Shown here one piece after another: positions 7,086 through 40,658 of a stretch of DNA of 64,000 nucleotides; the first letter of the stretch is position 1; each line of letters starts with the position of its first letter. The notes under the pieces were generated by a model that was not told where the DNA came from, searched no databases, and was given only the letters and a program-made list of their open reading frames with translations. Both the position numbers and the translations under genes were made by a program. Origin of the DNA: Paraglaciecola sp. (GTDB taxonomy: Bacteria > Pseudomonadota > Gammaproteobacteria > Enterobacterales > Alteromonadaceae); the NCBI GenBank assembly GCA_009993955.1, contig JAACSL010000003.1, forward strand, positions 1-64,000, written 5' to 3'.

Positions 7086-9179
7086 TTATTTCTTCGCTTC
7101 AGCCGCTTTACGTGCTTTAGTTTCAGCGATAACTTTTTCTGAAACGTTAGCAGGACATGGCATGTAGTGTGAGAACTCCATAGAGAACTGACCACGGCCA
7201 GATGTCATCGTACGTAAAGTACCGATATAACCAAACATTTCAGACAGAGGTACGTCCGCTTTTACGCGCACACCAGTTACACCTGCTTCTTGGTCTTTGA
7301 TCATACCGCGACGACGGTTCAAGTCACCGATTACGTCACCTACGTGGTCATCAGGTGAGAACACATCGACTTTCATGATGGGTTCAATCAACTGTGGGCC
7401 AGCTTTAGGAATTGACTGACGGAAAGCACCTTTCGCTGCAATTTCAAACGCGATAGCTGATGAGTCAACGGCGTGGAATCCACCATCCATCAATTCAACT
7501 TCAACGTCTAACACTGGGAATCCCGCTAAGGTACCGGTGCTCATCATGCCTTTGAAACCTTTTTCAATGGCTGGGAAGAATTCTTTAGGAACGTTACCGC
7601 CCACAACAGAAGACTTGAAGTTAAAGCCAGAGTTGGGTTCGCCAGGACGAATTTTGTAGTCAATTTTACCGTATTGACCAGAACCACCAGATTGTTTCTT
7701 GTGGGTATAAGAATCTTCCACTTCTTTGGTGATGGTTTCACGGTAAGCAACTTGTGGTTCACCCACGATCAAATCAACACCGTATGTACGCTTCAGAATG
7801 TCTACTTTAATGTCTAAGTGTAATTCACCCATACCTTTAAGGATGGTTTCACCTGAGTCGATATCTGTCTCAACACGGAAAGTAGGGTCTTCAGCCACCA
7901 TCTTACCGATAGCAACACCCATCTTCTCAGAACCACCTTTATCTTTAGGTGCAACAGCAATAGAGATTACCGGCTCTGGGAATACCATGGCTTCAAGGGT
8001 ACAAGGGTGTTTTGGATCACATAGCGTGTGACCAGTTTGTACGTTTTTCATGCCCACGATGGCAACGATGTCACCCGCTGTCGCAGTACTAATTTCTAAA
8101 CGATCGTCCGCTTGCATTTCACACATACGGCCAATACGTTCAGTTTTACCAGTGAAAGAGTTAAGCAAGGTATCACCCTTGTTTAATACACCAGAGTAAA
8201 CACGAATAAAGGTTAACGCGCCAAAACGGTCATCCATGATTTTGAACGCTAAAGCACGGAAAGGCTCAGAGGCGTCAACTTTAGCGAATTTACCAATTGG
8301 GTTACCTTCTTCGTCAGTCAAAGGCTGTGGATTTACTTCGTGCGGAGCAGGTAAGTAATCTACCACGGCGTCAAGAATGTTCTGAACACCTTTGTTTTTG
8401 AAAGCTGAACCACAGAAAGTGGGGAAGAAAGCCAAATCACGTGTACCTTTACGGATACAACGCTTGAGGTCTTCGATAGACGGTTCTTCACCATCCATGT
8501 ATGCCATCATCAGGTCGTCGTCTTGTTCAACCGCTGTTTCAACTAATTCAGAACGGTATTTTTCTACCTTCTCAACCATATCAGCAGGTACGTCGGTTAC
8601 TTTGAAGTTTTCTGGTAAACCAGAGTCGTCCCAGATGTAAGCTTGACGTGTCAAAATATCAACAACACCAACAAAGTTTTCTTCAATACCAATAGGCAAA
8701 GTCATGACTAAGGGGTTAGCAGCCAATACTTTTTTGATTTGGCCAACAACACGGTAGAAATCAGCACCCATACGATCCAACTTGTTCACGAAAATAACCC
8801 GTGAAACTTTAGAGTCGTTAGCATAGCGCCAGTTAGTTTCTGATTGTGGCTCAACACCACCAGAACCACAGAATACACCGATACCGCCATCCAATACTTT
8901 CAGTGAACGATAAACTTCAACGGTGAAGTCAACGTGCCCAGGGGTATCGATAACGTTAAAACGGTGACCTTTCCAGAAACAGCTTACTGCTGCAGACTGG
9001 ATAGTAATACCACGCTCGGCTTCTTGAACCATGAAGTCGGTAGTAGATTCACCGTCGTGCACTTCACCCAATTTATGGATTTTGCCAGTGAGTTTTAAGA
9101 TACGTTCTGTAGTGGTAGTTTTACCCGCGTCAACGTGGGCGAAAATACCGATGTTTCTATAAAGGGATAAGTCTGTCAT
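7086..9179 (-). CDS. fusB: Elongation factor G, second (EF-G2 type) copy
   Basis: A 697-residue translational GTPase. G1 is AHVDAGKTT (residues 14-22), G3 is DTPGHVDF and G4 is [10 protein letters not shown]; all domains of EF-G are present at normal length. The segment AVSCFWKGH and the [16 protein letters not shown] stretch differ from the canonical str-operon FusA and match the second EF-G found in Shewanella, Vibrio and Pseudomonas (fusB/fusA2). It may work in translocation or ribosome recycling; the sequence does not say which. It stands alone, convergent with the cyclophilin gene. The canonical fusA is expected upstream of tuf, outside the window. Confidence 0.92.
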
Positions 9180-9323: not shown

Positions 9324-10340
9324 TTACAAAATCGGTAAGACGCGATTCCTGCCAAGACGTTTGGCTTCATAGAGTTGTTTGTCAGCCTGTTCTACCAAGG
9401 CGAGGGGATTCATGCCTTTTTGAATCTCGGCTATGCCTATTGAGGCCGAGATATCCCCTAAAATTTCACCTGTGCGTTTATCTTTTACCCGAATTTTTTC
9501 AATAGCTTTGCGCATCGTTTCAGCCATGCTACGGGCCACACTAAAATTCGAGTTGGGTAGAATAATAGCAAATTCTTCACCACCAAAGCGGAAGGCCTGG
9601 GCGCCTTCACGGCAACTACTTTGTAATTTCTTGGCGGTAGCTTTGAGCACTAAGTCGCCCATCACGTGGCCATAGTTATCATTGATTTTTTTGAAATGAT
9701 CGAGGTCAACCAGCATCAAGAATAACTTGGGTTGCAGGGCATGGTTGGCCAGTTCTTCATCAAAATAACGACGGTTACACAAACCAGTGAGGGCATCGTA
9801 GAGGGCATCCTGCTGGCTTTGCTCCAGTTGTGCGCGTAGGGCACTGATCTCTCTTTGCGCATCTGTTAAGGCAGCATTGAAGCTCATGGTGCTGCGTCTA
9901 ATGCTTTGTGTTTCGCTGACTAAGTTGCGTACCAATGACATCACTTCGTCAAGGGATAAACCTTCATTTTCCACGGTGGCTAGTTGATCGGCGCAATTGT
10001 CTACAATTTGTTTAAAGCTGTTGGCCTCGCTACGGGTATCCGTGATCGATTGCGATAGCTCCACCAACATGGCTTCCAGCGATTGGCGCAATTCCCAAGC
10101 ACTTATCTCATCTCCAACCGATAGATAATGGCGATATAACTCTTTGGTTTTTGACTCTGACATGGGCACATTGGTTTGCAGCACTTTATCAATAGCCGAC
10201 TTAAGCTCTGGCGATTCGTTGGCCACATAGGTATACCAGAGGGCGTAATTGATCGGGGCTGCAGATACTTTATGTTTAAGTAACATTGGAATGGTTTGTT
10301 TTAAGGTGTCGAACGACTTTTCAATGCTTTGCTTGGCCAC
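9324..10340 (-). CDS. Diguanylate cyclase (GGDEF), soluble, linked to barrel/half-PstS genes
   Basis: A 338-residue cytoplasmic protein with no membrane segment. Residues 1-170 are helical with a probable coiled coil at 150-180. The GGDEF domain covers about 180-338, with signature FRFGGEEF (GGEEF 253-257) and IDLD-equivalent LVDLDHFKKIND. The product would be cyclic di-GMP made from two GTP. The inhibitory RxxD site is changed to REGA, so product inhibition is probably lost. The start is GTG at 10340, with AAGGA six bases upstream. It is the third gene of a run with the beta-barrel and half-PstS genes (71-base gap), matching the second module at 37370-40658. Confidence 0.9.
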   Translation of the reverse strand: MAKQSIEKSFDTLKQTIPMLLKHKVSAAPINYALWYTYVANESPELKSAIDKVLQTNVPMSESKTKELYRHYLSVGDEISAWELRQSLEAMLVELSQSITDTRSEANSFKQIVDNCADQLATVENEGLSLDEVMSLVRNLVSETQSIRRSTMSFNAALTDAQREISALRAQLEQSQQDALYDALTGLCNRRYFDEELANHALQPKLFLMLVDLDHFKKINDNYGHVMGDLVLKATAKKLQSSCREGAQAFRFGGEEFAIILPNSNFSVARSMAETMRKAIEKIRVKDKRTGEILGDISASIGIAEIQKGMNPLALVEQADKQLYEAKRLGRNRVLPIL

Positions 10341-10411
10341 AGGAGATCCTTCAATATTCTATGTTATTACAATGCTGCACAGTCTAGTTTATACCATCAT
10401 GGCACGCAGCA

Positions 10412-10837
10412 TTACTCTTCTATGCGAAATACCACCGAGAGAGTCTCGGGTATAGCTTTATCACCTAACACGTAGCCCACGCTGAATGGATGAGCGAGCA
10501 AATGAGCAATTACGTCATCAACGGAGTTGAGTTGCATAGGCGGTTTGTTTTTACCAGCAAATTTCATTTGTGCCCAGTACGATTGAATTCTGTGTTCTGT
10601 TAGACCAATCACCTTGGTATTAAACAATACCCTTTCAGCGCTATCGATGGGCAGAGCGACGGGGGTGAGACCCAAACCTGTCGGCGCACCCATAAACAAA
10701 GCGCGCACTTGTTGCCGATCAAGTTGGATATTCTGCTGGTGAGTATTAGCGACAACAATTAAAGACCGCGCCACGGCACTCGTCTGACTTCCCAGCACTA
10801 ACACGCACAAAAAAGCCAAGCGTCTTAGAAGACCCAT
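10412..10837 (-). CDS. Small periplasmic PstS-like (phosphate-binding-protein-like) protein
   Basis: A 141-residue protein with a signal peptide (to about SAVA, residue 23). The remainder resembles one lobe of PstS-type substrate-binding proteins: SLIVVANTHQ, RALFMG, then RIQSYWAQMKFAGKNKPP and a C-terminal VGYVLGDKAI. A full PstS is twice this size, so it is a half-size relative. It begins inside the last 13 bases of the upstream barrel gene, which implies translational coupling. A paralogue lies at 38970-39404 in the same order. A sensory or adaptor role for the neighbouring cyclase is inference; no transporter genes accompany it. Confidence 0.8.
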   Translation of the reverse strand: MGLLRRLAFLCVLVLGSQTSAVARSLIVVANTHQQNIQLDRQQVRALFMGAPTGLGLTPVALPIDSAERVLFNTKVIGLTEHRIQSYWAQMKFAGKNKPPMQLNSVDDVIAHLLAHPFSVGYVLGDKAIPETLSVVFRIEE

Positions 10838-12048
10838 TCTAAACTCACTTGATACAAGGTGGCTTGGCGATCAAATTCAGCGTCATTCTTAATGGAAAAC
10901 AGCGAACGCTGTCCATGTCTGCCCATTAAAAAAGCAACTTCAGCTTTCAGTGCCAGATTATTTTGTAAGTCCCACCGGGTGCCTATTACGTACTTGCTCA
11001 AATCATCACGGGGGAGTTGTTGAAAAAGATTTTGATAGGCAGCAGACAGTGCATCGAATTGTGGGGATACATTGTCGAGGATCTCGTTTTGTGGCGAAGG
11101 GTAGTCATTGCGAAAATAAATATAGCTCAAGTAATGCGTCAAACTGTCGCGATACAAACCAAGGCTCGCAGAATAAATTTGTACATCGGGATTGGTGATT
11201 TGCCGTGAACGGGAGTCTAGCCATTCTATACGGGCGAAATAGTCTAGGGCTTCTTTAATGATTGAAATTTGGGTAACTTGCAAGGTACCACGGGTATTGA
11301 GGGATGCCGCTGAACGGGTATAACCGAGCTGCGCGAGCTGGGTGGCAAACTGAGTTAATTCAGGACTTTCTGTTGATGCCGTGGTTTGATGCCAAGCCAC
11401 CCGAAATTCTAAATTATTGTTACTGACTTTGGCGATCAAGCCATGCAAATCATCCGCCCCAGCATTATTAAAAATACTGTCGGCCACAAAAATATCACCC
11501 GAAAAGTTACCATAATAGCCCTCTAAATAGAGTTGCAGACCGTCAAACAGATGGCTCAGCGAAGCGTTGGCACCGGTATACGTGGTAAAAATACTGTAAT
11601 CTAATTGTGGTGGCGTAATCCACGGATAGGCATAACCCACATCCAAATGCTCACTATAAGAGAAAAATGGGGTGCGCATTTTGCCCAGTTTTATGCGCAA
11701 ACTTTCATTGGCTTGGTAGGTCAGATACAACCATTCCGCCCCAGAATCACGGGTATCGCTGGAATGGGCTAACAATTGCGTGGTAAAACTTAATTTTGCC
11801 GAAACCGGCCACTCTAGTTGCAGGCCAAACAGACTCTGTTGGTCGATGGAGATTGTATTGTCGTAACCCAGATAGTCAGCGTTGTTATCATCCAAATACC
11901 CGGCTACCACTCTGGCAAAACCAGACACTTCAATTTCATTATCACCCGCATGTACTGGCGAGCTGCAGACTAGAATACCTGCAAAAGCTAGTACATTCTT
12001 GCAGTGCAGGATGCTGGCGTTGCGCTTGATAATAGTTGGTCGCGTCAT
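10825..12048 (-). CDS. Outer-membrane porin-like beta-barrel protein
   Basis: A 407-residue protein with an N-terminal signal (ending PVHA at about 35) and alternating beta-strand sequence through to a C-terminal SLEWVF, the usual aromatic end of a BAM-inserted barrel. The N-terminal strands start with EVSGFARVVAGY. The feature VGYAYPWITPP near residue 140 recurs as VGYAYLWVRPP in the paralogue at 39391-40658. AAGG lies seven bases before the ATG. It is first in a three-gene run with the half-PstS and diguanylate cyclase genes. Whether it conducts solutes or serves as a surface sensor is unknown. Confidence 0.82.
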   Translation of the reverse strand: MTRPTIIKRNASILHCKNVLAFAGILVCSSPVHAGDNEIEVSGFARVVAGYLDDNNADYLGYDNTISIDQQSLFGLQLEWPVSAKLSFTTQLLAHSSDTRDSGAEWLYLTYQANESLRIKLGKMRTPFFSYSEHLDVGYAYPWITPPQLDYSIFTTYTGANASLSHLFDGLQLYLEGYYGNFSGDIFVADSIFNNAGADDLHGLIAKVSNNNLEFRVAWHQTTASTESPELTQFATQLAQLGYTRSAASLNTRGTLQVTQISIIKEALDYFARIEWLDSRSRQITNPDVQIYSASLGLYRDSLTHYLSYIYFRNDYPSPQNEILDNVSPQFDALSAAYQNLFQQLPRDDLSKYVIGTRWDLQNNLALKAEVAFLMGRHGQRSLFSIKNDAEFDRQATLYQVSLEWVF

Positions 12049-23918: not shown

Positions 23919-24683
23919 TTATAATTGCCGCACCCACATATTTCTGAAACTCACTAAATTACCATGGTCTTGCAATTGTAATGGCGCACAACCATGTGTT
24001 TTATAGCTAGGGGGACCAATCCACTCCGTTGAGCCTTGGATCTCTGTGTGATTTTGCAGCAATACTCCGTTATGAATGACCGTGACAAATCCTGGGCGAG
24101 TTAACCTTTCTCCCTCAAAGCGTGGTGCCTGAAAGATAATGTCGTACACCTGCCACTCTCCGGGCGGGCGCATCGCATTAGCCAGTGGAATGGTTTGTTT
24201 ATATACCGAGCCCGTTTGACCATTTGCGTAGGTGCGATTGTTGTATGAATCCAAGATTTGTATTTCATAACGTTGCTGCAAAAACACACCACTGTTATTG
24301 CGTTGCTGGCTTTCTTTGCCCGCTACATCGGTGGGGGTTTTCCATTCCAAGTGCAATTGGATATCGCAAAATGACTGCTTGCTGACAATGTCGCCAGTCT
24401 CTGGTTTGACGGTAATGGTGTCGCCAGTCACTTTCCATTGGGGCTCTCCTCCTTTGAGCGCTTGCCATTGGCTGAGCGCTTTTCCATCACCAATTAATAC
24501 GATGGCATCAGAGGGGGGGGGCCCTGCTGGCGCTTGGACAATGGGAGGTTCAGGATCCCAGACTTCGGTTTTTTCAGCCAGTTGCCAAGGTTCTAAGGTT
24601 TGTTGCTCTGCCGCCATGGTTAAATTGGATGCTGTTGCCAAGCTAATTGAACCTGCCACCAACAAAATATAAGTATGTCGCAT
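23919..24683 (-). CDS. DUF1080 (3-keto-disaccharide hydrolase-like) secreted protein
   Basis: A 254-residue protein with a signal peptide ending TMAA. The concanavalin-like DUF1080 fold is seen in LIGDGKALSQWQ, FCDIQLHLEWKTP, NSGVFLQQRYEIQILDS and a C-terminal VSFRNMWVRQL. Members act on 3-keto-glycosides made by GMC-type 3-dehydrogenases, which fits the genes upstream. It is last in a seven-gene operon. Codons 55-57 are a run of nine C on the coding strand (24513-24521), and slippage there would truncate the protein early. Confidence 0.87.
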   Translation of the reverse strand: MRHTYILLVAGSISLATASNLTMAAEQQTLEPWQLAEKTEVWDPEPPIVQAPAGPPPSDAIVLIGDGKALSQWQALKGGEPQWKVTGDTITVKPETGDIVSKQSFCDIQLHLEWKTPTDVAGKESQQRNNSGVFLQQRYEIQILDSYNNRTYANGQTGSVYKQTIPLANAMRPPGEWQVYDIIFQAPRFEGERLTRPGFVTVIHNGVLLQNHTEIQGSTEWIGPPSYKTHGCAPLQLQDHGNLVSFRNMWVRQL

Positions 24684-34992: not shown

Positions 34993-35976
34993 ATGTTTCG
35001 CATTGCCACCTTCAACATTGAAAATCTCGACAGCAGTAGTGATCTCAATAACCCAGAATTGATTCAACGTATTCCCGTTTTGCGCATGATGCTCAAGCGT
35101 TTAAATGCCGATATTCTGTGCCTGCAGGAAGTGCACGGCCAAGAGACAAGCGCACATACAAGTGCTCGACCCAAACGCAATTTTGCTGCCCTCGATAAGG
35201 TGTTAGAGACAACGCAATATGCTGGCTATGCACGCGTTTCGACCTTGACCTCCGATAACCAGCCTTATGACAAACGCAATTTACTTGTATTGTCACGCTG
35301 GCCGATTGTGGAACATGCTCAGTACCGCAATCATTTCATTGATACCTTGCAATATCGCAAAGTCACGGCAAGCCCAGCCGAAGAAAGTCGAGACTTAAGT
35401 TGGGAAAGACCCATTTTACATGCGCAAATTGATGTACCCGCACTGGGACGTTTACACATCATTAATTTGCATTTGAAATCGCGTTTGGCATCGTCAGTGG
35501 CTGGGCAAAAACTCAATAACTATACGTGGGCAAGTGCCGCCGGGTGGGCTGAAGGGTTTTATTTGTCGTCGATAAAGCGGGTAGGCCAAGCCTTGGAAAC
35601 ACGCGTTTTGTTAGATAGCTTGTTTGATAGCACTCCAGAGGCAAATATCGTGGTTTGCGGGGATTTCAACGCAGAGCCAGGTGAGGTGCCCGTTGAGGCA
35701 ATTTGTGGCAGGGTTGAAAACACGGGTAATCCTAATTTACGCAGTAAAGTCTTGATCCCATGTAGTGCAGCCATTGCCCAATCAGTGCGTTTTAGTCACC
35801 TGCATCAGGGGCGTGGCAACTTATTGGATCACATGCTCATATCGCAAAATTTGAGCAGCAATTTTGTGCAAGCGCAGTTGTACAATGAAAATCTACATGA
35901 TGAAAGTTTGCCTTTCGCCAGTGATGTAAAATTTCCAGAATCAGACCATGCCCCTTTTGTTGCCAGTTTTAGTTGA
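34993..35976 (+). CDS. Endonuclease/exonuclease/phosphatase family protein
   Basis: A 327-residue protein of the DNase I-like phosphoesterase fold. FNIENLD and CLQEVHGQE (Glu) lie near the start, NLHLKSRL in the middle, CGDFNAEPGE at about 220, and FPESDHAPFVASF at the C-terminus; together these give the Asn/Glu/Asp/His metal site. It has no signal peptide. The substrate could be DNA, a phospholipid or another phosphodiester. It is a single gene between the FIST operon and ndh. Confidence 0.88.
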   Translation: MFRIATFNIENLDSSSDLNNPELIQRIPVLRMMLKRLNADILCLQEVHGQETSAHTSARPKRNFAALDKVLETTQYAGYARVSTLTSDNQPYDKRNLLVLSRWPIVEHAQYRNHFIDTLQYRKVTASPAEESRDLSWERPILHAQIDVPALGRLHIINLHLKSRLASSVAGQKLNNYTWASAAGWAEGFYLSSIKRVGQALETRVLLDSLFDSTPEANIVVCGDFNAEPGEVPVEAICGRVENTGNPNLRSKVLIPCSAAIAQSVRFSHLHQGRGNLLDHMLISQNLSSNFVQAQLYNENLHDESLPFASDVKFPESDHAPFVASFS

Positions 35977-36067
35977 GTATTCTGGCACTTTTTGCCCACT
36001 TGAACAGGCGAATGGGCTACCATAGCCAGCTAGTTTTAGTATTGCAAAACGGGTGAGGAGCAAAAGG

Positions 36068-37354
36068 ATGTTACGCATTGTTATCGTGGGTGGTGGTGCG
36101 GGTGGTTTGGAATTGGTCACTAAGTTAAGTCGAGTGGCGCGCAAAGGGCGAGGCATGCAGATTGTCCTGGTGGATAAACAGCGAACCCATGTATGGAAAC
36201 CTTTATTGCACGAAGTGGCGGCTGGCGTCATCGATAAAAATTCTGACGGTGTTGATTATCGTATTCATGCCAGCATTCATCACTACGAGTTTCAACAAGG
36301 CGAAATGTGTGGTTTGGATATCGCCAATAAAACACTGTCACTTGCACAACTTAATGACGAACATGGCGATGAGATACTACCGGCTCGGCAGCTCACTTAC
36401 GACAAATTGGTCATGGCATTGGGTAGCGTTAGCAACGATTTTTCTACTCCTGGTGTGTCTGAGCACAGCTTTTTTCTCGATTCCTTGAGTCAAGCAGAAG
36501 CATTTCACCGAACATTGATTAACCAGTTCCTCAAACTCAATTACACCAGTGATCAGCAAAGCCTTAAAGTCAGCATTGTGGGCGGTGGCGCCACAGGCAC
36601 AGAGTTGGCAGCACAACTTCACCATGTGGCGAATTTAGCCAACAGCTACGGAATGACGGCGCTCTCGGCAAAACGCTTACAACTCACTATCATTGAAGCG
36701 GGTCCACGTATTTTACCTGCATTGCCACAAAGAATTGCCAATGCAGCCAAACGAGCACTAGAAGACATCGGTGTTACCGTGTTGGAAAATACCCGTGTCA
36801 TTCGTGCTGAAAAAACCGGGTTTGTCACCCAAGATGGTACAACCCTGGATGCCAATTTAATGGTTTGGGCGGCAGGGATTAAAGCGCCTGACGTGGTAGG
36901 TGATTGGGGCTTTGAGCTGAATAAATTGCAGCAAATAGTGGTTGATCCTTATTTACGCTCAACGGTTGACCAGAGCATATTTGTATTGGGGGATTGCTGC
37001 GCCTGTTTGCAAGCAGACAACCGTTGGGTGCCGCCTCGGGCACAATCTGCGCACCAAATGGCGAGTCTGGTTTACGGCAACCTGTTAGCGGAGTTAGATA
37101 ACAAAGCCCTCAAGTCCTGTGTTTATAATGATTACGGTTCGCTGATTCATTTATCAAAATACAGTACGGTGGGGAGCTTGATGGGCAATTTGTCTAATAG
37201 CAGCATGTTTATTGAAGGGCATTTGGCTCGTTTTGTTTACAACTCGTTGTACAGCATGCATCAGTTTGCTGTGCATGGCATCATCAAGGGCATGATTGGT
37301 ATGCTCAGTCGTCAGGTCAGTAAATTTGTGGGTAGTAAATTAAAACTACATTGA
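36068..37354 (+). CDS. ndh: Type II NADH dehydrogenase (NDH-2)
   Basis: 428 residues from the ATG at 36068, preceded by GAGGAG and AAAGG; an in-frame GTG at 36053 is less likely. It has two Rossmann motifs, IVIVGGGAGGLELVTKL at the start (FAD) and SIVGGGATGTELAAQL at about 170 (NADH), then LMVWAAGIKAPD and VLGDCCA. Length is close to E. coli Ndh (434). It oxidises NADH and reduces quinone at the inner membrane without pumping protons; the C-terminal amphipathic part provides attachment. Confidence 0.92.
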   Translation: MLRIVIVGGGAGGLELVTKLSRVARKGRGMQIVLVDKQRTHVWKPLLHEVAAGVIDKNSDGVDYRIHASIHHYEFQQGEMCGLDIANKTLSLAQLNDEHGDEILPARQLTYDKLVMALGSVSNDFSTPGVSEHSFFLDSLSQAEAFHRTLINQFLKLNYTSDQQSLKVSIVGGGATGTELAAQLHHVANLANSYGMTALSAKRLQLTIIEAGPRILPALPQRIANAAKRALEDIGVTVLENTRVIRAEKTGFVTQDGTTLDANLMVWAAGIKAPDVVGDWGFELNKLQQIVVDPYLRSTVDQSIFVLGDCCACLQADNRWVPPRAQSAHQMASLVYGNLLAELDNKALKSCVYNDYGSLIHLSKYSTVGSLMGNLSNSSMFIEGHLARFVYNSLYSMHQFAVHGIIKGMIGMLSRQVSKFVGSKLKLH

Positions 37355-37369
37355 AATGGACAATTCTCT

Positions 37370-38983
37370 TCAAGTTTTTTTAGTTTTGCGGTCATAAAAA
37401 GCGACGTCACCACGACCCTTATCTTTGACTTGATACATGGTGTTGTCGGCGTTAACCATCAACTCATGTAGCACTTTTCCATCTTTGGGGGCAGCCACAA
37501 TGCCAATACTGGCGCCCACCTGACAACGTTCGTACTCGCTAATGTGTATGGGTTGTTGAATACTGTCTAACAATTGCTCGGCTAGTTCTGCGGTGCTGGT
37601 CACATCAAATTCATCAAGCTGCCGAGCCACAACAAATTCGTCGCCCCCCCAACGAATACAAATGTCTGAACTCATCTCAAAATGGATTTTAATGCGTCGC
37701 GCAATTTCGACGAGTACCAAATCGCCCGCTTCATGGCCATAGGTATCATTCACCGGCTTAAACTTGTCGAGGTCAATCATCATCAACAGGAGGTGGCGAC
37801 CATTTTTCATGCATTCAAATAGGGCCTTGTGGAGTTTTTTCTCACCTGCGCGGCGGTTCATTAAATGGGTCAAGGTATCGTGATCCGCCTCAAAGCGTGT
37901 TTGAAATTCGCGTTGAGTGCGTTCGGTGATGTCATGCAAAATCACTTCAATTATCGTTCCCGTATCATCTCGATGAGCAGAACGTTGGTCACTGAGTTTG
38001 GCAAACAAACAATGTAACCACTTTGTTTGTGTGCCTATAGTGCATTCGATATCTAAGGTAATCTGGTCAAACTTATCTTCCGCGCGGATCTCACTGAGTA
38101 GTTTTTGCATTTTTTCGGTGTCATTGAGCAGCACAGGAAAATTTAATGATGGCAATTTATCTTCACCGACAGGGGTGAAATGCTGCTCAAAAGCTGGATT
38201 GTGAGTGGTGATCATATTGTTTTCATCAAGCAGACAAATGCCCGCACTGGCTTGCTCGAAAATAAGTCGAAATTTTCGTTCTAGTTCTTGGGTTTTTTCG
38301 CGTAGTTCACGTTCATTACTGATGGTCAGATGCAATTCATGCATCAAAGAGTTGATCCCCTGAACTAACTTGCCTATTTCATCCTGTGGGCCATGTTTTA
38401 TTTTGAGCATACGCATGGTAATGGGTTCACTGGGATTAATGGTGGCAAAACTTTCTGTCAAATTCTGAATGGGGCGAGTTAAGCGGCGGTGCACAAAAAT
38501 GGACACAAAAAAGGCAATGATGACGGAGTGAAGCAGCATTAAGAAGACTTCTTTTTTTGTGGCCTTTTGCGCTTGTTGTTGGATGAACTCTTCGTTTGGA
38601 AAGAGGTTTAGGGTGCCGATTTGATTGTCTTGAATAAAGGGGTGACTTAATACCAGAGAAATTTGCTCTCCTTGGCCATCGATATTACCTTGGGTAATAA
38701 ACATATTTGGTTCACCAAACAGATTAACCCCTTCCACTAAGTCATTGCTTAATAGGCCGTTAACTATTTCTTGACCTAACTCACGGTCACCTAAATAAGC
38801 GGCAATAGCAGCGGTTTTTTCCATGCTCCTACCAAGCTGTTCGGCTAATTGATAGTTGGTGGTCTTGCGCTCATTGAGGCCTGCGTAGTAGGAAAAAGTT
38901 GAAGAGACCAATGAAACCAATAAGGCGACGAAGGCAATAGACACGGCTACTTTAAAGTTGAGCTTTTGGCTAATTTTCGTCAA
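37370..38983 (-). CDS. Membrane diguanylate cyclase with periplasmic, HAMP and PAS domains
   Basis: A 537-residue protein: TM1 at 11-33, periplasmic domain 34-145, TM2 at 146-164, HAMP 165-220, PAS about 232-352 and GGDEF about 360-530. The signature is IRWGGDEF (446-450) with LMMIDLDKFKPVND; the I-site RxxD is absent (MSSD). The topology resembles YfiN/TpbB cyclases, which are held by a small periplasmic protein. The start overlaps the half-PstS gene by 14 bases, and that gene overlaps the barrel gene by 14. The run therefore looks like one coupled signalling module, with the small periplasmic protein as a possible regulator of the periplasmic domain (inference). Confidence 0.92.
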   Translation of the reverse strand: MTKISQKLNFKVAVSIAFVALLVSLVSSTFSYYAGLNERKTTNYQLAEQLGRSMEKTAAIAAYLGDRELGQEIVNGLLSNDLVEGVNLFGEPNMFITQGNIDGQGEQISLVLSHPFIQDNQIGTLNLFPNEEFIQQQAQKATKKEVFLMLLHSVIIAFFVSIFVHRRLTRPIQNLTESFATINPSEPITMRMLKIKHGPQDEIGKLVQGINSLMHELHLTISNERELREKTQELERKFRLIFEQASAGICLLDENNMITTHNPAFEQHFTPVGEDKLPSLNFPVLLNDTEKMQKLLSEIRAEDKFDQITLDIECTIGTQTKWLHCLFAKLSDQRSAHRDDTGTIIEVILHDITERTQREFQTRFEADHDTLTHLMNRRAGEKKLHKALFECMKNGRHLLLMMIDLDKFKPVNDTYGHEAGDLVLVEIARRIKIHFEMSSDICIRWGGDEFVVARQLDEFDVTSTAELAEQLLDSIQQPIHISEYERCQVGASIGIVAAPKDGKVLHELMVNADNTMYQVKDKGRGDVAFYDRKTKKT

Positions 38984-39404
38984 GTCGGTATACCACTTTC
39001 ACGTTGTCGGTGACCGCCGTTGCCGGTATATAGGCAATGGCCTGATTAATTTTTTCCACTTTCGCCAATATGGCTGCAATTGAGTCTAGGGTTTCTGGTG
39101 GTTTGGCTCTGCCAGAGAACAACAATCGCGCCCAATAGGCTTTAATTTTGCGCTCATCTTGATTCACTAAACTGACATAGAAGTCATTTTTCAAGCTAGA
39201 TTGTGAGGGTAAATCCAATGGTTGTACATGCTCGCCGTCAGGGAAAGTCAGAAAACGCCCCATGTAGATATCGATGACCTCGCGTTTTGACAAGGATTCA
39301 ATCGGGTTGTTTTTGTTCACTACCACCACAAATGCTGTCGCCATACTCTGCCACGAGACCAGCATTAAACAAAACATGAGGCTTACGTTCTTAAGCACGA
39401 TCAA
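38970..39404 (-). CDS. Small periplasmic PstS-like protein, second copy
   Basis: A 144-residue protein with a signal peptide (to about MATA, residue 23), then AFVVVVNKNNPIESLSKREVIDIYMGRF, KIKAYWARLLFSGRAKPP and IAYIPATAV. It is clearly related to the protein at 10412-10837 in layout and motifs (YWA.(3)FAG/FSG.(2)KPP). It is half the size of PstS. It overlaps the barrel gene upstream and the cyclase downstream. A regulatory role towards the cyclase is plausible but not shown. Confidence 0.82.
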   Translation of the reverse strand: MIVLKNVSLMFCLMLVSWQSMATAFVVVVNKNNPIESLSKREVIDIYMGRFLTFPDGEHVQPLDLPSQSSLKNDFYVSLVNQDERKIKAYWARLLFSGRAKPPETLDSIAAILAKVEKINQAIAYIPATAVTDNVKVVYRLDEN

Positions 39405-40658
39405 AACACCACGCTAGCACTGACACTGACAAGATTACTTGCTGAGACGACGCGATATCCTCGGGCGCCTCTATATCCCACAAGCCCCCGCCGTAGGGAT
39501 CAATATTAAAATGATCAGCCTGTGCCTTAAATACGAGTTGCTCAGAATAGTGCCACTTGGCGCCGATACTCACAGATTGTTGTTCAGTGGTACTGCGCTG
39601 CAAGGTTAATTCTGTGCCCGCTGCGATTTGTTGAATGGGAACACGTATTTCAGCAGGCAGTGCGTCAGGTAGCTGCGGAGCCAAAAATTCCAGCGAACGT
39701 CTGTTTTTAACAAGGGCCAGTGACGAGTAATAGGTGATGTCATTTAGTCGATAACCGATGCTCACGTAGGCAGAGTAGTTTGAGGGTGCGGTTAACCATG
39801 ATGATTGAGATTTTCCTACCTCGGTTTGTACAATCCAGTTGGCGTGATCATAGGCTAAACCCACAGCGGAATAAGATATTTCATGAGGTTTGGCAGCAAT
39901 GCCATCCGCGTAATACTTGGCTTGCGGCCACAATTCAGTGGGTATCATCGACAAACCCTGTTGTAACTGCTGTAGTTCATCAGCCTCAAATGACTTCACG
40001 TCAGAAAAGGAGTCAGAAGCGCGTAGGGTAAAATCCCCTACCTGATAAGCAGCACTGATAGTTAAAATATCGTTGAAATTGATGGTAAACGGTTCGGTAC
40101 CAAAGCGGAGTTTGGTGGTTGTATGCCCGGCCGCTAATTTTAGCTGTAAAAAGCCGCCGTAGAAATTGTCACTGTATTCAATATCGACCCCATCCAAATG
40201 GCCAACAGAAGCAGAGAATGAATAGAATTCATGGGGGGGCGCACCCACAAATAAGCATAACCAACATAGGGATATTCGGATATCAGATAGAGATCGGTGT
40301 TCATTCTTCCGACACGTACAGCCCAATTTCGCACAGGGCGATAACGCAGAAATGCCAACTCCAAGTAGTTATCCCATTCTCGAATCCGACGATCTTGCCA
40401 CACGTACTGCACGACAGCGTCTAACTCGTCACTGATGGAAATGTTTGCCTGGATGCCAATAAGAGAATCGCGGTTTAAGGTAAAACCGGCATGTGAGTCA
40501 TTGATGTAGTTAGACCGAAAACCGATTTCATCATCGTCACTGTAACTGGCTGTGAGGGTGGCAAAGCCACTGAAATCTGCCTGTGGTGTACGGGCCAAAG
40601 CATTGGAAAAAGGTAGGCTGAAGATTAGGATCAGAAATATAGCTATACTGCGCCACAT
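39391..40658 (-). pseudogene. Porin-like beta-barrel protein, frameshifted at a C7 tract
   Basis: The first frame (40658-40140) gives a signal peptide ending NALA, then DFSGFATLTASYSDDDE and VGYAYLWVRPP. Immediately after the run of seven C on the coding strand (40233-40239 on the plus strand), the protein continues only in the other frame as HEFYSFSASVGHLDGVDIEYSDN, ending at 39391. One more C would join the halves into about 422 residues, matching the intact paralogue at 10825-12048. It is either a sequencing error, a fixed mutation, or a slippage-prone on/off tract. The last residues read WCFDRA rather than ending on the aromatic residue. Confidence 0.8.

What the first reader, a model, noticed from the sequence alone, without database searches (positions are those of the whole stretch)
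37370..40658. Overlapping outer-membrane barrel / half-PstS / membrane diguanylate cyclase module, possibly a YfiBNR-like relay with a different outer-membrane part
Seen: three minus-strand genes overlap by 14 bases each. They encode a porin-like barrel, a 144-residue periplasmic protein resembling one PstS lobe, and a cyclase with TM-periplasmic-TM-HAMP-PAS-GGDEF. Known: in the YfiBNR system a small periplasmic protein (YfiR) inhibits a similar cyclase (YfiN) and an outer-membrane protein (YfiB) relieves it. Inference: here the barrel and half-PstS protein take those roles, so the cell may couple a surface or solute signal to c-di-GMP. The half-PstS protein has no transporter, which fits a sensor rather than an importer.
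Basis: partly seen in the sequence, partly recalled or inferred. Interest (0 to 1): 0.7.

Follow-up and report, generated by a model that had tools for sequence, protein, structure and literature searches.

The report
VpvABC-type porin–lobe–cyclase signalling module
A marine bacterium carries a three-gene outer-membrane-to-cytoplasm sensing unit of the kind known as VpvABC in Vibrio cholerae, here with its porin gene broken, and in related bacteria the same two-protein sensor head also sits beside chemotaxis receptors and sensor kinases.

Summary
The module is real and conserved, but of a known kind: VpvABC (porin, periplasmic binding protein, membrane diguanylate cyclase), described in Vibrio cholerae (PMC12456836, passages read). 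It is not YfiBNR by membership: no YfiR, CHASE8 or OmpA domain found. [quoted passage not shown] The half-PstS protein is one PstS lobe by model (pLDDT 92; first 17 Foldseek hits phosphate-binding proteins), lacking the SGT phosphate loop. Of 93 such genes in this and related genomes, 88 have a porin beside them and 22 a same-strand GGDEF gene (21 with membrane segments). The cyclase sensor domain (strong hits) is in 29 of 98 genomes, all among the 66 with a half-PstS. Corrections: the window's porin is broken across three frames, and the 14-base porin/half-PstS overlap is an artefact of that. Beyond the print seen here: the pair also stands beside chemoreceptors, GGDEF-EAL proteins and kinases, and partner class clusters on the lobe's tree (15 changes, shuffled mean 47; kinases alone do not cluster). 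So it looks like an exchangeable sensor head. Ligand, contacts and sign are untested.

The parts
37370..38983 (-). VpvC-type membrane diguanylate cyclase, 537 aa: TM1, periplasmic alpha/beta sensor domain (about residues 34-130), TM2, HAMP, PAS, GGDEF
   Evidence: AlphaFold pLDDT 87.3, pTM 0.51; GGDEF E=3.8e-41
38970..39404 (-). VpvB-type single PstS lobe, 144 aa with signal-peptide-like N-terminal helix; no SG[ST]R motif
   Evidence: pLDDT 92.3; first 17 Foldseek hits are phosphate-binding proteins
40233..40658 (-). VpvA-type porin, first piece (frame 0), matches residues 1-142/146 of intact relatives
   Evidence: 50-59% identity to four relatives, best E 3e-54
39430..40239 (-). VpvA-type porin, middle piece (frame 2; mechanical ORF 39391-40326), matches residues 141-411 of L037
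   Evidence: 46-47% identity to three relatives, 32% to L040; best E 2e-90
39401..39436 (-). VpvA-type porin, last 11 codons and stop in a third frame (frame 1), matches relatives' C-terminal strand ending in Phe
   Evidence: 8 of 11 identical to L037 and to L039, weak alone (E 1.6 and 0.7); placement rests on position
10825..12048 (-). paralogous intact porin of a second module
   Evidence: barrel family
10412..10837 (-). paralogous half-PstS protein (27% identity to the first)
9324..10340 (-). cytoplasmic GGDEF protein 71 bases downstream of the second pair (no TM by a hydropathy scan)
   Evidence: no other locus of that call has a TM-less GGDEF gene directly after the pair

Best explanation
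This is a VpvABC-type signalling module in a Paraglaciecola-like marine bacterium. Shown here: the single-lobe PstS protein and the porin form a conserved pair, mostly in Gamma- and Betaproteobacteria; the cyclase carries a sensor domain that goes together with this pair; and a Vibrio locus with the published VpvC residue spacing carries the same three families. Inferred: the porin (VpvA type) admits a small solute; the soluble lobe (VpvB type) binds it, or changes contacts because of it, at the periplasmic face of the cyclase; the four-stranded sensor domain passes this through TM2, HAMP and PAS to the GGDEF domain and raises c-di-GMP. The ligand is probably not plain phosphate, because the SGT phosphate loop is gone. 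In this genome the porin reading frame is interrupted, by recent mutation or assembly error, so the module may be running without its porin or not at all.
For: Anatomy matches the published description of VpvABC (VpvA a porin, VpvB a periplasmic binding protein, VpvC a membrane-bound DGC; vpvAB conserved in Alteromonas, Shewanella and others). Half-PstS: single PstS lobe by model and Foldseek; PBP_like_2 in 11 of 75. Porin: Porin_4 in 23 of 65 relatives' barrels. Synteny: 88 of 93 half genes in this and related genomes and 77 of 79 in named genomes have a same-strand barrel; the nearest recognised transducer within 500 bases is a same-strand GGDEF gene without EAL in 22 of 93 and 38 of 79, against 53 GGDEF matches, some of them fragments, in the whole 4.16-Mb genome. 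Co-occurrence: strong hits of the cyclase's sensor domain (E<=3e-29; next hit 3e-12) are in 29 of 98 genomes, all among the 66 with a half-PstS; 27 of 27 genomes with a close half (E<=3e-26, cut chosen afterwards) have it. Link to Vibrio: the cyclase of the V. mexicanus locus L198 has 18 of 19 residues at published VpvC positions including W at -42, the only one of 86 GGDEF ORFs with that W; next best 12 of 19. HMMs seeded by this genome's proteins and built on relatives, L198 not included, find L198's half (5e-28) and porin (3e-86).
Against: No V. cholerae sequence was compared directly; the link runs through L198 and published residue numbers. V. cholerae VpvC has no PAS domain and most relatives here do. 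10 of 32 sensor-domain cyclases are not next to a half-PstS, and G018 and G019 have the cyclase without a close half, so the cyclase can stand alone. At the laxer cut of 1e-5 the sensor profile matches 46 of 98 genomes, 6 of them without a half-PstS match (G017, G025, G049, G061, G070, G086). The porin is broken here. Deleting the whole vpvABC operon had no effect on c-di-GMP in one V. cholerae study, though weakening its promoter site cut it by 40%. No complex was modelled. Half-PstS genes are often beside no recognised transducer (47 of 93 and 17 of 79). Sampled genomes are related, so counts are not independent.
Confidence: 0.9

Rival explanations
1. YfiBNR-like relay: the half-PstS protein inhibits the cyclase and the outer-membrane protein relieves it.
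For: Same three compartments (outer membrane, periplasm, inner membrane); NCBIfam's DgcN/YfiN model matches the cyclase, best in the GGDEF part, below its cut-off, and the model of kinases found near YfiR-like proteins matches residues 109-217, also far below cut-off; the Vibrio relative L198 has a sub-threshold CHASE8 match, E 0.063; the predicted sensor is a small helix/four-strand domain.
Against: No DUF4154, CHASE8 or OmpA domain at E<=0.01 in the 75, 35 and 65 proteins scanned; hhalign to K-12 YfiR, YfiN N-terminal part and YfiB shows nothing; K-12 gene order is R-N-B, here porin-lobe-cyclase; published sign for VpvA/VpvB is positive.
Confidence: 0.08
2. The pair is a solute-uptake unit (porin plus binding protein for some transporter) and the neighbouring cyclase is incidental.
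For: 47 of 93 half genes have no recognised transducer within 500 bases; porins and binding proteins usually serve uptake (general knowledge).
Against: A single lobe cannot clamp a ligand by the usual two-lobe mechanism (general knowledge); ABC-ATPase motif nearby in only 2 of 93; transducer class clusters on the half-PstS tree, 15 changes against a shuffled mean of 47; sensor domain and half co-occur even where unlinked.
Confidence: 0.07
3. In this genome the module is a decaying remnant: the porin is a pseudogene and the lobe and cyclase are being lost, as in relatives that keep only the cyclase. (Compatible with the best explanation.)
For: Two frame breaks in the porin; G018 and G019 carry the cyclase without a close half, G018's beside the same endonuclease-like gene family as at window 34993-35976 (reading of the letters).
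Against: The pieces are as conserved towards four relatives as those are among themselves (N 51-59% vs 49-61%, middle 32-47% vs 29-53%) and the half and cyclase are intact; the first break is at a homopolymer, where assembly errors are common.
Confidence: 0.35

Closest known systems
VpvABC of Vibrio cholerae (vibrio phase variation operon, VC2456-VC2454)
   Same: Porin, periplasmic binding protein and membrane diguanylate cyclase in one operon; vpvAB reported as a conserved pair in Alteromonas, Shewanella and others (PMC12456836, passages read)
   Different: Published VpvC is HAMP 174-228 plus GGDEF 230-411 without PAS (PMC12051071, passages read); here a PAS domain follows HAMP. The porin here is broken. 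No expression or phenotype data here.
YfiBNR (TpbB) of Pseudomonas and E. coli
   Same: Outer-membrane, periplasmic and inner-membrane cyclase parts; cyclase with a small periplasmic sensor and GGDEF
   Different: YfiR (DUF4154), CHASE8 and OmpA-like YfiB not found here; different gene order; the periplasmic partner's sign in VpvABC is reported as positive
PstS phosphate-binding protein of the PstSCAB transporter
   Same: Fold of one lobe (TM-score over the query 0.53-0.65 in the first 17 hits), residual profile similarity
   Different: One lobe only, SG[ST]R loop absent in 75 of 75, an inserted YWxRLxFSG region, ABC motif near 2 of 93
NspS-MbaA of Vibrio cholerae (recalled; named in a listing)
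   Same: Periplasmic binding protein that instructs a membrane c-di-GMP enzyme (recalled)
   Different: NspS is a full two-lobe binding protein and no porin partner is known to me (recalled, not tested)

Membership tests
VpvABC | Porin gene beside the periplasmic protein, same strand | tested here: met
   Present but broken in the window; a barrel stands beside 88 of 93 half genes in this and related genomes
VpvABC | Periplasmic binding protein homologous to VpvB | tested here: met
   HMM seeded by this genome's half proteins and built on relatives finds the half of Vibrio locus L198 at 5e-28; V. cholerae VpvB itself not compared
VpvABC | Membrane DGC with periplasmic sensor, HAMP, GGDEF in the same operon | tested here: met
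   operon inferred from overlap and strand, no transcript data
VpvABC | Domain layout of VpvC (HAMP directly followed by GGDEF, W240 in the linker) | tested here: not met
   A PAS domain is inserted and T stands at -42 in the window; L198 meets the layout. Layout varies within the family, so this marks a variant, not exclusion
VpvABC | Control of c-di-GMP and biofilm by the operon | not testable with these tools
   no experiment
YfiBNR | YfiR domain DUF4154 (PF13689) | tested here: not met
   0 of 75 half proteins at E<=0.01; hhalign to K-12 YfiR 0.4%
YfiBNR | CHASE8 sensor domain in the cyclase (PF17152) | tested here: not met
   0 of 35 cyclases at E<=0.01; K-12 DgcN scores 1e-33; L198 0.063
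YfiBNR | OmpA-like lipoprotein YfiB | tested here: not met
   OmpA in 0 of 65 barrels at E<=0.01; 23 match Porin_4 and 6 OMP_b-brl
PstS | Two-lobed fold with SGT phosphate loop and transporter genes | tested here: not met
   one lobe, SG[ST]R in 0 of 75 and 0 of 43, ABC motif near 2 of 93

The most novel reading that the evidence does not exclude
The porin plus single PstS lobe is a general, exchangeable outer-membrane/periplasm sensor head: evolution has plugged it into four kinds of inner-membrane output (diguanylate cyclases, GGDEF-EAL proteins, chemotaxis receptors and hybrid histidine kinases). The lone lobe forms a ligand clamp together with the periplasmic domain of its partner, a split binding protein whose second half is the receptor itself.
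Probability: 0.3. Interest if true: 0.68.

Novelty: new member of a known kind. Interest (0 to 1): 0.42.

Why it matters
VpvABC's input is described as unknown and its porin and lobe have been called hypothetical proteins (PMC12456836, PMC8754643, passages read). Showing that the same pair stands beside chemoreceptors and kinases as well as cyclases, largely by lineage, gives a way to find the signal (chemotaxis assays on the receptor-linked versions) and suggests a general route for carrying outer-membrane traffic into several signalling systems.

Tried and rejected
YfiBNR membership: rejected on three domains and three hhalign comparisons. ABC-transporter role: not supported by the neighbourhood scan (motif match only). 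Functional phosphate site: not supported. Phase variation of the porin at the C7 run: considered, not adopted. The run is absent from the four nearest relatives, no run of six C/G or seven A/T lies near the second break, and three other split barrels (L108, L161, L245) show no C or G run of six or more; L245 has a run of six T. Direct V. cholerae comparison: not reached. It was not among the 80 best loci of the one genome-contig scan nor among the control names printed in the PF12849 and PF00990 searches (13 and 8 of 14 printed), so published residue positions and a Vibrio mexicanus locus were used. The sensor-domain profile found nothing below E 0.5 in the PDB by sequence; a fold search of the whole cyclase model was not run because GGDEF hits would swamp it. 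Paper searches led to nothing relevant.

Limits of the counts: the S1 regions (regions) surround the best-listed hits outside the own genome, whose list was itself cut; lower-listed hits were not fetched. The S2 regions were hand-picked. The cut for a close half was chosen after seeing the list. The linked/unlinked count used a typed subset of the half places; the 10 unlinked loci were checked separately, 1.5 kb on each side. Transducer labels come from home-made HMMs. The half-PstS tree is a FastTree of 128 columns with 75 of 188 inner branches open; 69 of 196 rows carry no label.
Full report
What is there. The window lies in a 4.16-Mb genome. Contig lengths of three genomes of its genus equal those of Paraglaciecola marina, Paraglaciecola sp. 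20A4 and P. polaris records, so I take it to be a Paraglaciecola in the GTDB sense (inference). The cyclase (37370-38983) and half-PstS gene (38970-39404) are intact ORFs. The porin is not: four near relatives (L037-L040) have intact barrels of 417-425 aa, and their N-terminal part (residues 1-142 of L037), middle (141-411) and last 11 residues match three different frames of the window. The first break is at seven consecutive C on the minus strand (40233-40239); relatives read W-A/S-R-P-P there without such a run. The last 11 residues are placed by position and 8 of 11 identities in two relatives, not by significance. The pieces are as conserved towards the four relatives as those are among themselves, so the breaks are recent or are assembly errors. 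The barrel/half overlap of 14 bases is an artefact of the second break; the half/cyclase overlap of 14 bases is real as an ORF fact, and the four nearest relatives overlap by 11 to 14.

The half-PstS protein. AlphaFold2 on 75 sequences gives pLDDT 92.3. The first 17 Foldseek hits in the PDB are phosphate-binding proteins, TM-score 0.53-0.65 over the query and 0.30-0.39 over the two-lobe targets: one lobe. The profile aligns with the middle part of PstS; Pfam's PBP_like_2 matches 11 of 75 at E<=0.01. The SG[ST]R loop of PstS is absent from 75 of 75 and from 43 of 43. R or K at 72 is kept in 75 of 75 and D64 in 70 of 75. In an inserted segment W91, F96 and G98 are invariant also in 43 sequences found without that motif as a search pattern.

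The porin and the cyclase. Porin_4 matches 23 of 65 relatives' barrels. The cyclase model (pLDDT 87.3, pTM 0.51) shows a long first helix, two shorter helices and four strands before TM2. Of 35 linked cyclases, 35 match GGDEF, 27 PAS_8 and 22 HAMP; none matches CHASE8 at E<=0.01.

Conservation. The genome holds five half-PstS genes, all beside a barrel: the finding; a second set in this window at 9324-12048 with a cytoplasmic GGDEF gene; two tandem pairs (L006); and one pair at a contig end, convergent with a GGDEF-EAL gene (L007). The family is in 66 of 98 genomes, own included. In 93 half genes from 80 fetched regions, the own genome and the window, 88 have a same-strand barrel within 150 bases; the order is porin-lobe-GGDEF in 17 (one being the cytoplasmic GGDEF of the second window set) and lobe-porin-GGDEF in 5; one further GGDEF gene lies 830 bases away. 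Nearest transducer within 500 bases: GGDEF same strand 22, chemoreceptor (MCP) 16, GGDEF-EAL 4, EAL 1, GGDEF opposite strand 2, kinase 1, none 47. In 79 half genes from 80 named loci, 77 have the barrel; transducers: GGDEF same strand 38, GGDEF-EAL 17, GGDEF opposite 3, kinase 4, none 17. In a hand-picked set of 20 regions with 24 half genes: GGDEF 11, MCP 6, kinase 2, none 5. Of 30 short loci from the 21 Vibrio-like genomes, 9 show the end of a chemoreceptor and 1 a GGDEF protein by HMM; 12 more show a long ORF whose letters look like the end of a hybrid kinase (my reading). Pfam finds HATPase plus receiver domains in L196, a HisKA-HATPase-receiver protein in L149, HisKA in the divergent neighbour of L177, and MCPsignal plus HAMP in L148, L162 and L166.

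Co-occurrence. A profile of the cyclase sensor domain finds 32 places in 98 genomes at E<=3e-29, then nothing until 3e-12. They lie in 29 genomes, all among the 66 with a half-PstS (Fisher p 8e-7), and include 27 of 27 genomes with a close half (cut chosen afterwards; p 4e-22, not corrected for kinship). At the laxer cut of 1e-5, 46 of 98 genomes match, 6 of them without a half-PstS, so weak relatives of the sensor do not follow the pair. 22 of the 32 strong places are within 3 kb of a half gene. The other 10 are not; 8 of those genomes carry a close half elsewhere, and G018 and G019 do not. In G015 and G018 the lone cyclase lies next to a gene of the same endonuclease-like family as the one at window 34993-35976 (reading of the letters).

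Partner class and lineage. On a FastTree of 196 half proteins (127 labelled), the four transducer classes need 15 changes against a shuffled mean of 47.1 (0 of 200 as low). By class: GGDEF 9 against 40.1, EAL 10 against 20.6, MCP 5 against 20.7 (each 0 of 500 as low), kinase 6 against 6.9 (49 of 500), so the seven kinases do not cluster. Near-copies inflate the clustering, and the tree is poorly resolved.

What it is. The V. cholerae VpvABC system is described as porin, periplasmic binding protein and membrane-bound cyclase, with VpvA and VpvB contributing less than VpvC to c-di-GMP and rugosity, and with vpvAB without vpvC in Alteromonas, Shewanella and others, perhaps a conserved sensing unit (PMC12456836, passages read). 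PMC8754643 (passages read) calls VpvA and VpvB hypothetical and reports no effect of deleting the whole operon on c-di-GMP in its strain, but a 40% fall when the operon's VpsT site is mutated. I tested the link through Vibrio mexicanus L198: its 414-aa cyclase has 18 of 19 residues at the spacing published for VpvC (positions from PMC12051071, passages read, taking Lys287 from its docking list where its table prints 278; W240 from PMC12456836); it is the only one of 86 GGDEF ORFs with W at -42. After the cyclase, on the other strand, L199 has a 930-aa kinase-HMM gene, and L198 two ORFs of 412 and 499 aa, the second a kinase-HMM hit. VarS is VC_2453, next in number to VpvC; that the Vibrio gene is VarS is recalled. 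The family HMMs find L198's half at 5e-28 and porin at 3e-86. So the window module is VpvABC-type, a PAS-bearing variant common outside Vibrio.

How it most likely works. Shown: three compartments, conserved linkage, shared sensor domain. Inferred: solute through the porin, lobe at the cyclase's periplasmic face, signal via HAMP and PAS to GGDEF, output up. The lobe could act by completing a ligand clamp with the partner's sensor domain; nothing here tests that.

What is new beyond what I saw in print. Searches for VpvA/B/C (317 papers by word match, 20 listed and mostly unrelated, 1 paper) and for vpvAB and the locus tags (3 papers), and three related word sets (none, 15 of 22 listed), showed no account of chemoreceptor- or kinase-linked pairs. 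Three papers were read in passages only. In PMC12456836 'histidine kinase' does not occur and 'chemotaxis' only in a figure legend and a reference. Most subscription papers are not held, supplements were not read, and the original VpvC paper was not seen.

Noticed in passing
window 9324-12048: A second VpvAB-type pair with an intact porin, followed by a cytoplasmic GGDEF gene and then an EF-G gene at 7086-9179; in L160 a porin-lobe-cyclase set is also followed by an EF-G gene (reading of the letters).
   Followed up: partly
L148, L149, L150, L162, L166, L167; L068 and others: Porin-lobe pairs beside methyl-accepting chemotaxis receptors; L149 and L196 pairs beside hybrid histidine kinases.
   Followed up: partly
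L055, L059, L061, L064, L066, L153, L163, L164: The cyclase is followed directly by a GGDEF-EAL gene on the same strand, so porin, lobe, cyclase and a possible phosphodiesterase may form a four-gene unit.
   Followed up: no
L110 (unnamed same-genus genome G013): Five half-PstS genes in a tandem array, each with a porin, beside an EAL ORF on the other strand.
   Followed up: no
L108, L161, L245: Three further porins of this family split into two ORFs, without C or G runs of six or more at the break.
   Followed up: partly
rows for G001, G004, G010, G044: Some half-PstS matches in relatives contain one stop codon, possibly decayed copies or matches running past the gene's end.
   Followed up: no
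window 24513-24521: A run of nine G lies inside a 254-aa ORF (23919-24683, minus strand); possible slippage site or assembly weak point.
   Followed up: no
L287, L298 and window 34993-37354: In G015 and G018 the cyclase lies directly beside an endonuclease/exonuclease/phosphatase-like gene without the pair; in the window an oxidoreductase-like gene lies between.
   Followed up: partly
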